Shown: positions 28,113 to 33,927 of the stretch, piece after piece
Numbering within the stretch: position 1 is the stretch's first letter
Layout of the letters: each line of letters opens with the position of its first letter
Translations under genes and position numbers: made by a program
Notes under the pieces: generated by a model
The model's input: only the letters and a program-made list of their open reading frames with translations
What the model was told of the DNA's origin: nothing
Databases searched by the model: none
From: Rhizobium sp. N324
GTDB taxonomy: Bacteria; Pseudomonadota; Alphaproteobacteria; Rhizobiales; Rhizobiaceae
Assembly (NCBI RefSeq): GCF_001664485.1
Contig: NZ_CP013630.1
Span: forward strand, 4,445,501 to 4,509,500
Length of the DNA stretch: 64,000 nucleotides
Direction: 5' to 3'

Positions 28113-30593
28113 TCAACCCGAGAACACGACACGATGCGAACTGCCGAGGCTTCTGATTTCGCCTGCGGGCGGAAGATCGCTCTCGGTGCCAGAGAGCGCG
28201 TGGAGTTTCACGCGCCGCATCGCGCCGGGCGCCAGATGGAACCAGTCGTCGTCAGGCCGGTAGCCTTCGACATCGATATGCACCGATTGCGCCAGCCGGT
28301 CGGTCCTGAGATCGACGAACCAGTCGTCGCCGTCTCTGGCGAGCGATGCCTCGATGCCGGCATCATGCAGCGCCTTCCCCCGTCCGCACGGAAAGTGGAA
28401 GCTTTCCGCCAAAATGGCGCCGTCGGCCAGCGAACGCAGGCGGGCAACACTGGCATCATGCGCCGGCGGCCCGAAACGGAAGGCATAGGTCGTATCGAAA
28501 AAGGCGCCGAACAGTGAAGTCGCGGCAAGACGCTCGGTATCCCTTGCCGCCAGCTTGAAAGCCCTGCTGCCGCTGACGACCTGCTGCTTTCCGTCGCGCA
28601 GGCAGGCGACCTCGAGCTCCACGTCGAGCGCTGTATCCGTCTCGTTGACGACGTGCACGTCGAGACCGTTGGTCCCCTCGTCGGTGAACAGCGCCTGCAC
28701 CGGCCGGAAGGCGCGGCGCATCGCATACCAGACCGGCTTCGGCTCGCCGGTGGAATCGATCACCCCCCAGCCGGGGCCGGGCAGCAGGTCCTGCAATGTC
28801 CAGACGAGCGCACCGTTGCAGGCCGAGCCCTTGCGCCGCCACTCGGCGAAAGTCTCCTCGATCACCTCGCCGGTGACGGCGCGGGAGAGATCGAGATAGC
28901 GGCCCGGATCTTCGCGGCGCAGCCCGGCCGGATCGAGGTCGTAGAGAAGCTGCAGGTAGAAGTCGCGAACATCCTCGAAATCCCACGAAGCGCTGCGGTC
29001 GCGCGGCACGCGGGCCTTCCAGAGCGGGCTGTGGACGGCCGGCACGTCGAGATGGCGGTGCAGCGTCCTCTGCTGCGGCACATGCGCGAAGGCAAGGCTT
29101 TCGGAGGCAAAACGCACATCGGCGCGGCGTGCATCGGCAATCGGCCGCATATAGGCGCCGACACCGTAATAATGGGCGATACCGGCATTCGGCGAAAAGG
29201 GCATCGCCCCGCCATGTGGCGAATTCGGGACATAGGGCACGTCGGGACGCATGCGCGCAGCGATGGCCGGGATGATCTCATCGGTGACCGGCCCGCTCCA
29301 GAATTCGACGGGGAGACCCAGCATCGCCGCCTGCTGGTGAATTTCGCTGCCGCCGCAGAGCACTGCCAGCGATGGTGACGCCTGAACGCCATGCAGGAAT
29401 TCCTCGACCTCCGCATGCACATGGCCGAGAAACGCCTTGTCGGCGCGCGGATAATCGAAATTGGCGAACATGAAATCCTGCCATACGAGCAGGCCGAGTT
29501 CGTCGCAGAGCGCAAAGAAATCAGGCGTCTCGTAGGCCATGGTGCCGCCGATGCGGATCATGTTCATGCCGGCTTGAGCGGCAAGCCGCAGTAACGGTTC
29601 ATAATCCGCCCGCCCGCCCGGCAGACGCGCGATATCGGCCGTCGTCCACACCGCGCCGCGGCAGAAGATACGTTCGCCGTTGACAGTGAGCGCGAAATCG
29701 TCGCCGTCGGCGCCGCGCTCGACCTCGATCCGCCGGAAGCCGGTCGTGCCGAGCGAATACTCCACGTCGTCGGAAACGAGCGTCAGCTCATAGAGACGCG
29801 GAGCGCCATGCGTGTGCGGCCACCAGGGCTCGATGTCGGAAAGCTTGAGGATAGAAGAGTAATGGTTGTCGCCGATCTTCTCAAAAGGCTGCTCCATGCC
29901 GCCGCAGTGCAGCAGCATCTTGGGATGCTCGGCATTGCTGTGCAGGGAGACGCTGAGACGGCCGGCGCCATTCTCGTCCAACACGGCGCGGATGGAGACA
30001 TTGTCGATCGAGACGGGATTGCGCCGCACCAGCGAAATCGGCCGCCATGGCCCGACCGCATGGATATCGGGGCACCAGCCCGGCATATGGCCGAGCAGCG
30101 TCGTGCGGAAATTCTTCAGCCCCGCCGGCGTGATCATCTGAGGCCGCCAGCGTGCCCGCGGGCCGGGCTCCGACAGGCGGGGACCGAGTGCGCGAAAGCA
30201 GAGCGCCAGCTCGTCGCCGCCCGTCAGCGTCACCGGGATCTCGTGCGCGGTGAACATGCTTTCGGAAAACAGGATTTCCTGGCCGTTGAGGAAGACATGG
30301 CAAAGTGTGGCAAGCCCTGCGAACCGCAGGATAGCCTCACCGGGCTCGGCATCGAACAGCCGGCAGAGGTACCAGGCATCCCTGGTGTTCAGCGGCTCTG
30401 GATTTTCCCGGTCGAACAGCCCGGCTTTTTCGAGTGCTGCGGCAACGGTGCCGGGAACGGGTGCCGGAATGAACTGGGCGGAGAGCGGAATATCATGCGG
30501 CACGGCGCAGGCGCCCGGCTCCGTCAGGATCAGGTTCCAGCCTTCGGAAAGCAGGCTTTCCTCGGCACCGATGCTTGCCAAACGCCCCCGCAT
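28113..30593 (-). CDS. Glycoside hydrolase family 2, beta-mannosidase-like
   Basis: 826 residues. N-terminal sugar-binding jelly roll (AFRFAGLATLCHVFLNGQ-like region, DAWYLCRLF), immunoglobulin-like domain (WWPHTHGAPRLYELTL, LGTTGFRRIEVER), then the TIM barrel with GMNMIRIGGTMAYETPDFFALCDELGLLVWQDF. The acid/base position reads CGGSE (Glu417) instead of the usual GNNE, and the candidate nucleophile is Glu498 in FASES. No signal peptide, so cytoplasmic. Start chosen with GGAG eight bases upstream, 16 bases after the DUF1839 gene. It may trim or recycle a mannose- or glucosamine-type oligosaccharide of this locus. Confidence 0.85.
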   Translation of the reverse strand: MRGRLASIGAEESLLSEGWNLILTEPGACAVPHDIPLSAQFIPAPVPGTVAAALEKAGLFDRENPEPLNTRDAWYLCRLFDAEPGEAILRFAGLATLCHVFLNGQEILFSESMFTAHEIPVTLTGGDELALCFRALGPRLSEPGPRARWRPQMITPAGLKNFRTTLLGHMPGWCPDIHAVGPWRPISLVRRNPVSIDNVSIRAVLDENGAGRLSVSLHSNAEHPKMLLHCGGMEQPFEKIGDNHYSSILKLSDIEPWWPHTHGAPRLYELTLVSDDVEYSLGTTGFRRIEVERGADGDDFALTVNGERIFCRGAVWTTADIARLPGGRADYEPLLRLAAQAGMNMIRIGGTMAYETPDFFALCDELGLLVWQDFMFANFDYPRADKAFLGHVHAEVEEFLHGVQASPSLAVLCGGSEIHQQAAMLGLPVEFWSGPVTDEIIPAIAARMRPDVPYVPNSPHGGAMPFSPNAGIAHYYGVGAYMRPIADARRADVRFASESLAFAHVPQQRTLHRHLDVPAVHSPLWKARVPRDRSASWDFEDVRDFYLQLLYDLDPAGLRREDPGRYLDLSRAVTGEVIEETFAEWRRKGSACNGALVWTLQDLLPGPGWGVIDSTGEPKPVWYAMRRAFRPVQALFTDEGTNGLDVHVVNETDTALDVELEVACLRDGKQQVVSGSRAFKLAARDTERLAATSLFGAFFDTTYAFRFGPPAHDASVARLRSLADGAILAESFHFPCGRGKALHDAGIEASLARDGDDWFVDLRTDRLAQSVHIDVEGYRPDDDWFHLAPGAMRRVKLHALSGTESDLPPAGEIRSLGSSHRVVFSG

Positions 30594-30609
30594 GGTCAGA
30601 TCTCCGGCC

Positions 30610-32494: not shown

Positions 32495-33676
32495 TTACCC
32501 CAGTAGGCTAGTGTCCTGCTTGTGGACAAGAAGCATGCTCGACGTATTGCCGAGGATGCGGTCGTTCGAGATCATCAGCTGCGCGGAATGCGCGTCGCGC
32601 AGATGGCGTCCGAGGCTGAAGGGCGTGCCGTTCTTGTAGCCCATGATGCCGCAGATCAGCATGGCGTGGTTGACGATCTCCAGGATCGTCTCGGACGAGG
32701 CGATCTTGACGTTGTTCATCGCCACCGCAAAGCCCATCGAGGACAGCCTGTCGACATCGATCTTGGCATCCTCATAGGCCTTGAGGCCGGCAACCACATT
32801 GGATTTGACCATCTGCAGCAGGTTGGAAACCTCGGCGAGGCGGAGCGCTCCCGGCGGCGGGGCATCCGGCGCCTTGCGGGCGGCGGCGCGCACAAAGGCC
32901 TGGGCGCGCGCCACGGCGTCGACCGCGATGCCGTACCAGACGCCGCTCCACAACAGATGCGACGAAGCGAGCATGGATTGCGCCGCGATCTCGGCGAAAG
33001 GCTTCGGCAGGATCTGATGGGCCGGCGCCTGCCCTTTGAAGAGGAAGCCGTCGGAGCAGGTGCCGCGCATGCCGAGCGTATTCCACGCGTGCGTCCTTTC
33101 GAGCGTGTACTGATCCTTGAGAAAGGCCGTCAGCACCTGATCGGAGGAAGCCGCCTGCGCGTGAGCGCGCGAGGTGATCAGGATGGCGTCGGCATGCGAG
33201 CCGTAGGAAATGACGGTCGCATCCTTTTCGAGCCGGCAGACATCGCCATCGACTTCTACAGCGCAAATGCTGTTGCGCAGGTTTCCGCCGATGCCGCCCT
33301 CGGTGGTGGCAGAGGCGATCAGCAGCTGTTCGGCGGCGATGCTGCGCATGAAACCGCGATGCCATTCGCTGTCGGCGCCGTGTTCGACGAGGCTCGACAG
33401 CTTGATGTGATGCATGGCGAAGACCATGGCGCTTGCGGCGCAGGCTTGACCGAGCATCGAGCATAATTCGGCAATCTCGGTGATCGAGGCGGATTCGCCG
33501 CCGAGATGACGCGGCACCTGGATGCCGAGCAGCCTCTCGGCCTTCATCGCATCCACGGCTTCCCGGGGGAAACGGCCTTCGACGTCGACGGCATCGGCGT
33601 GTTTGGCGGCGATTTCGGCGACGCGGGCGACCCTTGCGACAAGACCGTCCTGCATGATCTTGACGGGGAAATTCAT
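32495..33676 (-). CDS. Acyl-CoA dehydrogenase-like flavoprotein
   Basis: 393 residues of the three-domain ACAD fold. N-terminal helices with EAVDAMKAERLLGIQVPRHLGG, FAMHHIK and the middle-domain flavin contacts (SATTEGGIGGNLRN, WNTLGMRGTCSDG); C-terminal SLGRHLRDAHSAQLMISNDR is the usual FAD-binding end. It overlaps the carrier-protein stop by one base (TGATG), and the ligase gene starts five bases after it. In this setting it may oxidise an aminoacyl or acyl group tethered to the carrier protein, as ACAD-like enzymes do for prolyl-carrier proteins in pyrrole biosynthesis, rather than act in fatty-acid beta-oxidation. This role is inferred. Confidence 0.84.
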   Translation of the reverse strand: MNFPVKIMQDGLVARVARVAEIAAKHADAVDVEGRFPREAVDAMKAERLLGIQVPRHLGGESASITEIAELCSMLGQACAASAMVFAMHHIKLSSLVEHGADSEWHRGFMRSIAAEQLLIASATTEGGIGGNLRNSICAVEVDGDVCRLEKDATVISYGSHADAILITSRAHAQAASSDQVLTAFLKDQYTLERTHAWNTLGMRGTCSDGFLFKGQAPAHQILPKPFAEIAAQSMLASSHLLWSGVWYGIAVDAVARAQAFVRAAARKAPDAPPPGALRLAEVSNLLQMVKSNVVAGLKAYEDAKIDVDRLSSMGFAVAMNNVKIASSETILEIVNHAMLICGIMGYKNGTPFSLGRHLRDAHSAQLMISNDRILGNTSSMLLVHKQDTSLLG

Positions 33677-33927
33677 CAGGCGACCTTCCGGCTGTCCCGG
33701 ATGAGATCGACCGTTCTGGCGATGGCCGAGATGCTCGCGAAGGATTTGCGGTTCAGGAGATTGTCGGGAAACTCGATGTCGAAGGCCTCTTCGATGCCGA
33801 GCATCAGCTGCACGGAGGCAAAGGACGTCAGACCCGCCGCATAAAGATCGGCATCGTCGGCGACCTGGTCGATCGACGCAGGAAGTTTGCCGAATTTGGC
33901 TACGAGGTCGCGGATTGTCTTATTCAT
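33676..33927 (-). CDS. Acyl/aminoacyl carrier protein
   Basis: 83 residues. The phosphopantetheine attachment region reads AGLTSFASVQLMLGIEEAF, with Ser35 as the modified serine and the following helix acidic, as in carrier proteins. LTSF instead of the DSLD/DSLE of fatty-acid ACP separates it from AcpP. GGAG lies seven bases before the ATG. First gene of the operon with the ACAD-like and ligase genes, so it is the likely acceptor of the activated amino acid. Confidence 0.9.
   Translation of the reverse strand: MNKTIRDLVAKFGKLPASIDQVADDADLYAAGLTSFASVQLMLGIEEAFDIEFPDNLLNRKSFASISAIARTVDLIRDSRKVA

What the first reader, a model, noticed from the sequence alone, without database searches (positions are those of the whole stretch)
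28113..33927. Aminoacyl-carrier-protein operon linked to glycan genes
Seen: carrier protein, ACAD-like flavoprotein, amino acid:[carrier protein] ligase, DUF1839 and GH2 genes follow each other with gaps of -1 to 16 bases, then a GT4 gene and a flippase fusion. Known: SerRS-like ligases of this type charge glycine or alanine onto carrier proteins, but what happens to the aminoacyl group afterwards was unknown to me. Inference: the ACAD-like enzyme oxidises or otherwise alters the tethered amino acid (precedent: prolyl-carrier-protein oxidation to pyrrole), DUF1839 transfers it, and the GH2/GT4/flippase genes process the glycan that receives it. This would be an amino-acid decoration system for a surface or cell-envelope glycan.
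Basis: partly seen in the sequence, partly recalled or inferred. Interest (0 to 1): 0.85.

Follow-up and report, generated by a model that had tools for sequence, protein, structure and literature searches.

The report
Aminoacyl-carrier cassette in exopolysaccharide loci
A five-gene set in this Rhizobium probably loads an amino acid onto a small carrier protein, alters it, and passes it to a sugar of a secreted polysaccharide; relatives sit in biofilm polysaccharide gene clusters, which makes a long-orphaned enzyme family testable.

Summary
Observation confirmed: CP, ACAD-like, SerRS-type ligase, DUF1839 and GH2 genes (33927-28113, minus strand; spacings -1, 5, 8, 16 bases), then GT4 and a flippase/hydrolase fusion. 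The five-gene order recurs in 15 of 15 genomes with DUF1839 among 349 sampled from the phylum, in two classes. In one Burkholderia-like genome it lies in a bep/bec-type biofilm exopolysaccharide locus.

Best reading: aminoacyl (perhaps oxidised glycyl) decoration of an exopolysaccharide. No chemical step is shown.

The parts
33676..33927 (-). aminoacyl carrier protein (83 aa), predicted 4'-phosphopantetheine Ser35 in GLTS
   Evidence: NF005480 above cut-off; PDB relatives 4h2w_C and 2jq4 (Atu2571), E about 1e-35; S35 invariant in 16 of 16
32495..33676 (-). ACAD-fold flavoprotein, predicted oxidase/oxygenase of the carrier-bound aminoacyl group
   Evidence: PF02771/PF00441; AF2 model pLDDT 81, weak in flavin loops; Ile369 at the MCAD-type Glu position, H89 and H240, each in 120/120 listed homologues
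31581..32489 (-). amino acid--[carrier protein] ligase (SerRS-derived, no tRNA-binding domain)
   Evidence: NF005479 525 bits; PDB relatives Bll0957 (3mey) and the 4h2w variant, best E 1.7e-100; C121, E166, C269 (candidate Zn ligands) invariant in 27/27
30610..31572 (-). DUF1839, predicted papain-fold aminoacyltransferase (Cys30, Thr128/129, His146)
   Evidence: PF08893 449.5 bits; AF2 pLDDT 93.7; CcbD/CtaG/AziU3 fold; Cys in 235 of 240 listed homologues, the other 5 gapped there
28113..30593 (-). GH2 glycosidase, beta-mannosidase-like, no evident signal peptide (by eye); acid/base Glu428 and nucleophile Glu509 (numbered from the TTG at 30626)
   Evidence: both Glu invariant in 14/14; GGSE motif
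26888..28066 (-). GT4 glycosyltransferase
   Evidence: PF00534; present in 39 of 80 close loci
23486..26797 (-). flippase (PF13440) fused to hydrolase 2 and hydrolase 1 (exosortase-A-associated types TIGR03101 and TIGR03100, below cut-off)
   Evidence: hydrolase 1 keeps G-x-C-S-G in 10/10, hydrolase 2 has no Ser/Cys at that place
22291..23466 (+). second GT4 glycosyltransferase, convergent with the operon
   Evidence: PF13439/PF00534; 50 of 80 close loci

Best explanation
The cassette makes and transfers an amino-acid-derived group onto a sugar of an exopolysaccharide or its lipid-linked precursor, in the cytoplasm. (1) The ligase activates a small amino acid (glycine by analogy, recalled) and loads it on the CP: the family's activity is known, not shown for this protein. 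(2) The ACAD-like flavoprotein oxidises the carrier-bound amino acid, probably at nitrogen or at C-alpha-N rather than by alpha,beta-desaturation: inferred. (3) DUF1839 takes the acyl group onto Cys30 and passes it to a sugar amine or hydroxyl, as CcbD does: inferred from fold and residues. (4) GH2 trims or remodels the glycan; GT4 and flippase build and export it: inferred from context. In Burkholderia the acceptor is most simply the Bep/Bec polymer; as published that polymer has no amino sugar, so there an ester is likelier than the amide predicted in 2010.
Against: No chemistry shown. The published H111 polymer carries no amino acid, although 0.3 M NaOH and NaOD would remove esters. becG is the mildest of the seven bec mutants listed (the others 0.43-0.66; no wild-type value was seen) and becF, by position probably the CP gene, was not a hit; transposon polarity is not excluded; that becG is the cassette's ACAD rests on annotation and position, not on a sequence comparison. 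In G324 the TIGR03100 hydrolase and the flippase of the published bep table were not among the genes scanned, so the match is not gene for gene. GH2 has no obvious role. Ten genomes have the ligase and ACAD without DUF1839 or GH2, beside other genes. In this window no polymerase was seen among the genes scanned (11-36 kb).
Confidence: 0.6

Rival explanations
1. The cassette makes a soluble amino-acid-sugar metabolite (a lincosamide- or mycothiol-like small molecule), and the flippase and GT genes export or glycosylate it rather than a polymer.
For: CcbD, CtaG and AziU3, the only full-length fold matches of DUF1839, come from small-molecule pathways (CcbD; the others recalled); GH2 and DUF1839 look cytoplasmic; no polymerase gene among the scanned neighbours in the window.
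Against: Wza, Wzc, Wzy, ManC, WcaJ or Wzz-type genes near the cassette in L131/L160, L132 and L139; bec-cluster mutants have reduced biofilm.
Confidence: 0.18
2. DUF1839 acts as an amidase or thioesterase that releases the modified amino acid, and the biofilm link is indirect (signalling or precursor supply).
For: Papain folds are mostly hydrolases; only fold and residues argue for transfer; the ligase-ACAD core also occurs without DUF1839, next to methionine-related genes by Pfam.
Against: The full-length matches are CcbD, CtaG and AziU3, not proteases, which align over only about 90-161 residues; strict linkage to GH2 in 15 of 15.
Confidence: 0.12
3. The ACAD-like protein acts on the sugar (an amino-sugar N-oxygenase like KijD3 or DnmZ) and not on the carrier-bound amino acid.
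For: The dibenzothiophene monooxygenase TdsC and KijD3 rank first by Foldseek; KijD3, DnmZ and a nitrososynthase are sequence hits (E 1.6e-12, 4e-9, 2.3e-7); the usual acyl-CoA dehydrogenase Glu is absent.
Confidence: 0.15

Closest known systems
SerRS-paralogue cassette discussed in PMC2922099, note added in proof (2010; example Atu2574 of Agrobacterium)
   Same: Same gene set: ACP, redox enzyme, SerRS paralogue, conserved uncharacterised protein, glycosidase, liposaccharide genes; same predicted role
   Different: A prediction without fold, catalytic residues or link to the bep/bec clusters; it predicts an amide and monooxygenation (that Atu2574 is a DUF1839 protein is my reading)
Lincosamide synthetase CcbC/CcbZ-CP/CcbD (LmbC/LmbD)
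   Different: A-domain instead of a SerRS-type ligase; antibiotic rather than polysaccharide; Cys-His-Glu triad, whereas in DUF1839 the His and a Thr seem swapped
Bep/Bec exopolysaccharide loci of Burkholderia (BCAM1330-1350; becA-R)
   Same: The G324 copy of the cassette lies in such a locus; the published bep table has GTs, ManC, a flippase-type transporter and a TIGR03100 hydrolase, of which GTs, flippase and hydrolase types are also found in this window
   Different: The published bep cluster was drawn as BCAM1330-1341, leaving the cassette genes out; no aminoacyl role proposed in the passages read; hydrolase and flippase not seen in the G324 genes scanned
AlmEFG glycylation of lipid A and Dlt D-alanylation (recalled, no call)
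   Same: Aminoacyl carrier protein feeding decoration of the cell envelope
   Different: A-domain ligases, unrelated transferases, no oxidation step, no glycosidase

Membership tests
amino acid:[carrier protein] ligase (aa:CP ligase) | Score above the curated NF005479 cut-off | tested here: met
   525 bits against 357
amino acid:[carrier protein] ligase (aa:CP ligase) | No tRNA-binding domain; SerRS catalytic core only | tested here: met
   302 aa; the SerRS models match only in the C-terminal core, profile positions 307-504 of 518
amino acid:[carrier protein] ligase (aa:CP ligase) | Zn ligands Cys/Glu/Cys (assignment recalled) | tested here: met
   C121, E166 and C269 invariant in 27/27
amino acid:[carrier protein] ligase (aa:CP ligase) | Aminoacylates its carrier protein | not testable with these tools
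   needs in vitro loading
CcbD/CtaG-type papain-fold carrier-protein-dependent transferase | Full-length fold including the C-terminal helical part | tested here: met
CcbD/CtaG-type papain-fold carrier-protein-dependent transferase | Catalytic Cys at the start of the first core helix | tested here: met
   C30 at the start of helix 30-41; 235 of 240 listed homologues, 5 gapped
CcbD/CtaG-type papain-fold carrier-protein-dependent transferase | Cys-His-Glu/Asp triad in canonical order | tested here: inconclusive
   PMC10318531 gives C(T/S)H for DUF1839; T128/T129 and H146 conserved; no superposition of side chains was made
CcbD/CtaG-type papain-fold carrier-protein-dependent transferase | Transfers acyl from a CP to an amine | not testable with these tools
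   needs enzymology
acyl-CoA dehydrogenase | ACAD fold | tested here: met
acyl-CoA dehydrogenase | Catalytic Glu base (MCAD Glu376 type; position recalled, aligned by sequence) | tested here: not met
   Ile369 in 120/120 listed homologues, 25/25 survey loci; but the dehydrogenase 7p98 has Thr there, so the feature is not universal
acyl-CoA dehydrogenase | Alternative catalytic Glu (isovaleryl type) | tested here: inconclusive
   the likely column is S239 (Ser 65, Ala 55 of 120) followed by invariant H240; alignment by sequence only
GH2 beta-mannosidase type | Acid/base and nucleophile Glu | tested here: met
   E428 and E509 invariant 14/14; assignment by motif
GH2 beta-mannosidase type | Asn directly before the acid/base Glu (clan GH-A; recalled) | tested here: not met
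   Ser in 13/14, Asn in 1
Bep/Bec exopolysaccharide locus | Cassette lies within such a locus in Burkholderia | tested here: met
   one genome, G324: Wza, Wzc, a 446-aa protein, Acyl_transf_3, three GTs, beta-helix, ManC, 292-aa protein, sigma54 VpsR-type, cassette, two Crp, WcaJ against Table 2 of PMC3584217 (passages); hydrolase and flippase of that table not seen

The most novel reading that the evidence does not exclude
A SerRS-derived ligase, an ACAD-like oxygenase without a Glu base and a CcbD-fold transferase together put an oxidised glycine group (for example N-hydroxyglycyl or glyoxylyl) as an alkali-labile ester on bacterial exopolysaccharides, a substituent missed because the one polymer analysed was extracted and read in alkali; a cytoplasmic GH2 with an altered sugar pocket edits the modified lipid-linked repeat.
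Probability: 0.22. Interest if true: 0.85.

Novelty: new variant of a known kind. Interest (0 to 1): 0.62.

Why it matters
[quoted passage not shown] The fold assignment of DUF1839, the conserved cassette and its place in bep/bec-type biofilm loci turn that into a defined experiment with a named transferase, a named cysteine and a named class of acceptor. If right, matrix polysaccharides carry an amino-acid-derived group that alkaline extraction may destroy, which would change how such polymers are isolated and how their solubility and adhesion are explained.

Tried and rejected
EF-P/EpmA/EpmB next door (34190-37020), a second aaRS-paralogue system: considered as a functional partner, rejected. 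It is in 76 of 80 close loci and in the three same-genus slices, but of the cassette slices from other genera only L137 has it, with a ThiC gene between.

Sequence search of DUF1839 against the PDB at E up to 10 gave nothing, so the CcbD link rests on the fold. Foldseek rmsd values of those hits are 5.5-7.1; VIA gives 3.7-4.2.

The search for related loci with the single ligase returned only close relatives (best 80 of 336, 89-99% identity); the wider survey came from the genome search. The 349 genomes are drawn evenly from the phylum and are not independent: the 15 positives fall into 4 families and 10 genera. Of 16 genomes with only sub-cut-off ligase matches I looked at 7 loci from 6 of them (L150-L154, L158, L159): no other cassette gene was found by tblastn. 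Homologue counts rest on capped lists: DUF1839 the best 120 of 1990 and the best 120 of 1086, ACAD the best 120 of 7791, so rarer variants may have been missed.

Paper searches: 10 used. DUF1839 alone found one paper; six locus names of the Agrobacterium and Bradyrhizobium sets found three, two of which name the ligase only in a table or list; the combined novelty search at 5 of 6 terms found none. Mocibob 2010 is not held; the ligase specificities (glycine, alanine) are recalled. Of the papers, section 17 of PMC2922099 was read whole; the others were seen as passages or listings.
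Full report
What is there. The minus strand of the window holds CP (33927-33676), an ACAD-fold flavoprotein (33676-32495), an amino acid:[carrier protein] ligase (32489-31581), DUF1839 (31572-30610) and a GH2 glycosidase (30593-28113), with spacings of -1, 5, 8 and 16 bases, then a GT4 gene and a flippase fused to two alpha/beta hydrolases, with a convergent second GT4. The ligase scores 525 bits against a cut-off of 357. 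Its nearest solved relatives are Bll0957 (3mey) and the variant in 4h2w, an entry that also holds a carrier nearly identical to Atu2571. The window's ligase shares the stretch GRAGKMLANNQRDQ with 4h2w and not with Bll0957; that this stretch faces the carrier is recalled. The window's CP is close to Atu2571, so ligase and carrier look like a matched pair. The genome is a Rhizobium by its neighbours (ligase 99% to an R. phaseoli locus).

Is the linkage real? Among 349 genomes drawn from the phylum, DUF1839 occurs in 15 and the ligase above its cut-off in 25; all 15 lie within the 25, and in 15 of 15 a DUF1839 directly follows the ligase. In those 15 the order CP-ACAD-LIG-DUF1839-GH2 is the same; the lowest identities to the window's proteins are 43% (CP), 47% (ACAD), 56% (ligase), 38% (DUF1839) and 45% (GH2). 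They belong to four families; homologue names point to Methylobacterium and Burkholderia among them. In the 80 close loci kept the order holds in 79; the last is cut by a contig end. Pairwise identities of the five proteins over 14 loci (L132 dropped for a short GH2 gene call) correlate at r 0.81-0.97, which shows joint descent but is not corrected for relatedness. Ten genomes have ACAD and ligase side by side without DUF1839 or GH2; a CP was found in 8 of the 10, on the other strand. Their neighbours differ: by Pfam, PNP_UDP_1 and IF-2B (read as methionine salvage), a Cys/Met PLP enzyme with a homoserine O-succinyltransferase family protein, or an AMP-ligase with an SDR. So CP-ACAD-ligase looks like a core, and DUF1839-GH2 like a glycan-side extension.

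Glycan context. In the cassette slices of other genomes, among the neighbours I scanned, lie ManC, WcaJ, a VpsR-type sigma54 activator and two Crp regulators (L131), Wzy, three GT4s and Wza (L132), a flippase (L133), and Wzz-type and GH5 genes (L139). On a second contig of G255, beside that genome's second DUF1839 and not the cassette, lie ManC, Wzc, the hydrolase fusion, a weak MatE match and a GT4 (L129). The fused hydrolase-2/hydrolase-1 protein is found in 9 of the 15 cassette loci, the window included.

Burkholderia. In G324 (DUF1839 90% to one named Burkholderia contaminans) the order Wza, Wzc, a 446-aa protein without Pfam match, Acyl_transf_3, three GTs, beta-helix, ManC, a 292-aa protein, sigma54 activator, cassette, Crp, Crp, WcaJ resembles the published bep table (Bcam1330 Wza, 1331 Wzc-type kinase, 1332 hypothetical, 1333 acyltransferase, 1334 TIGR03100 hydrolase, 1335-1338 GTs and transporter, 1339 beta-helix, 1340 ManC, 1341; PMC3584217, passages) followed by the regulators BCAM1342 (BerB) and BCAM1349 (BerA) (PMC9684580 and PMC5552954, passages). 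The hydrolase and the transporter were not seen among the G324 genes scanned, so the match is not gene for gene. The five cassette genes fall between the sigma54 activator and the Crp genes; that they correspond to BCAM1343-1347 is my inference. PMC5507470 (passages) aligns 14 of 18 bec genes with BCAM1334-BCAM1350, reports that all bec genes except becF, becM and becO were hit in the primary biofilm screen (becM and becO were not in the library), and gives 0.84 for becG, an acyl-CoA dehydrogenase-domain gene, against 0.43-0.66 for the other six bec mutants listed (units read as OD600 from their Table 2; no wild-type value was seen). This is the only experimental link. It is mild for becG, becF (by position probably the CP) was not a hit, polarity is not excluded, and I did not compare the bec proteins by sequence.

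GH2. Both catalytic Glu are kept in 14 of 14, but the residue before the acid/base is Ser in 13 of 14 instead of the Asn usual in that clan (recalled), and no signal peptide is evident by eye. This suggests a cytoplasmic glycosidase with an altered pocket for the sugar's 2-position (inference).

Amide or ester? The 2010 note predicted an amide to an amino group of a sugar. The B. cenocepacia H111 water-insoluble polymer is Gal-Glc-Gal-Man without amino sugar, extracted in 0.3 M NaOH and read in NaOD (PMC7084887, passages). If this is the acceptor, an amide is hard to place and an ester would have been lost. No amino-sugar gene was seen among the neighbours scanned with Pfam; not every neighbour was scanned.

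Verdict. Observation confirmed; interpretation largely right in outline, in print since 2010 as a prediction; no test of it was found in the searches made. The additions here are the fold-level identity of the transferase, the Cys-loss pattern, the missing Glu, the place in a bep/bec-type locus and the ester argument.

Noticed in passing
L142:5342-7342, L148:10204-12511, L145:10472-13806: Ligase-ACAD pairs without DUF1839 sit next to genes that look methionine-related by Pfam (IF-2B and PNP_UDP_1; Cys/Met PLP enzyme plus homoserine O-succinyltransferase family) or an AMP-ligase/SDR/alpha-beta hydrolase set, which hints at other uses of the aminoacyl-CP.
   Followed up: partly
window 23486-25237: In the flippase fusion, hydrolase 1 has a conserved G-x-C-S-G nucleophile motif (10/10) and hydrolase 2 has no Ser or Cys there: an active/inactive pair that might itself be an acyltransferase.
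   Followed up: partly
window 34190-37020: EpmB-like, EpmA and EF-P genes lie upstream; present in 76 of 80 close loci but, of the cassette slices from other genera, only in L137.
   Followed up: yes
window 12472-21839: ABC transporter, aldehyde dehydrogenase, FAD-dependent oxidoreductase (DAO), 2-oxoadipate dioxygenase/decarboxylase and LysR genes: probably a lysine- or pipecolate-type catabolic operon, unrelated.
   Followed up: no
L017, L018: Second copies of the ligase locus in assemblies that already have one (L006, L013); L018 is on a record titled plasmid pRspCCGE510C, so the cassette can be mobile.
   Followed up: no
P0227: A DUF1839 protein named as from a Gemmatimonadetes MAG (8.4-kb contig), so the family may reach beyond Proteobacteria.
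   Followed up: no
window 60539-63865: A tRNA-Arg (60611-60698, +) lies inside a long ORF read on the opposite strand; the 3' part of that ORF may be spurious.
   Followed up: no
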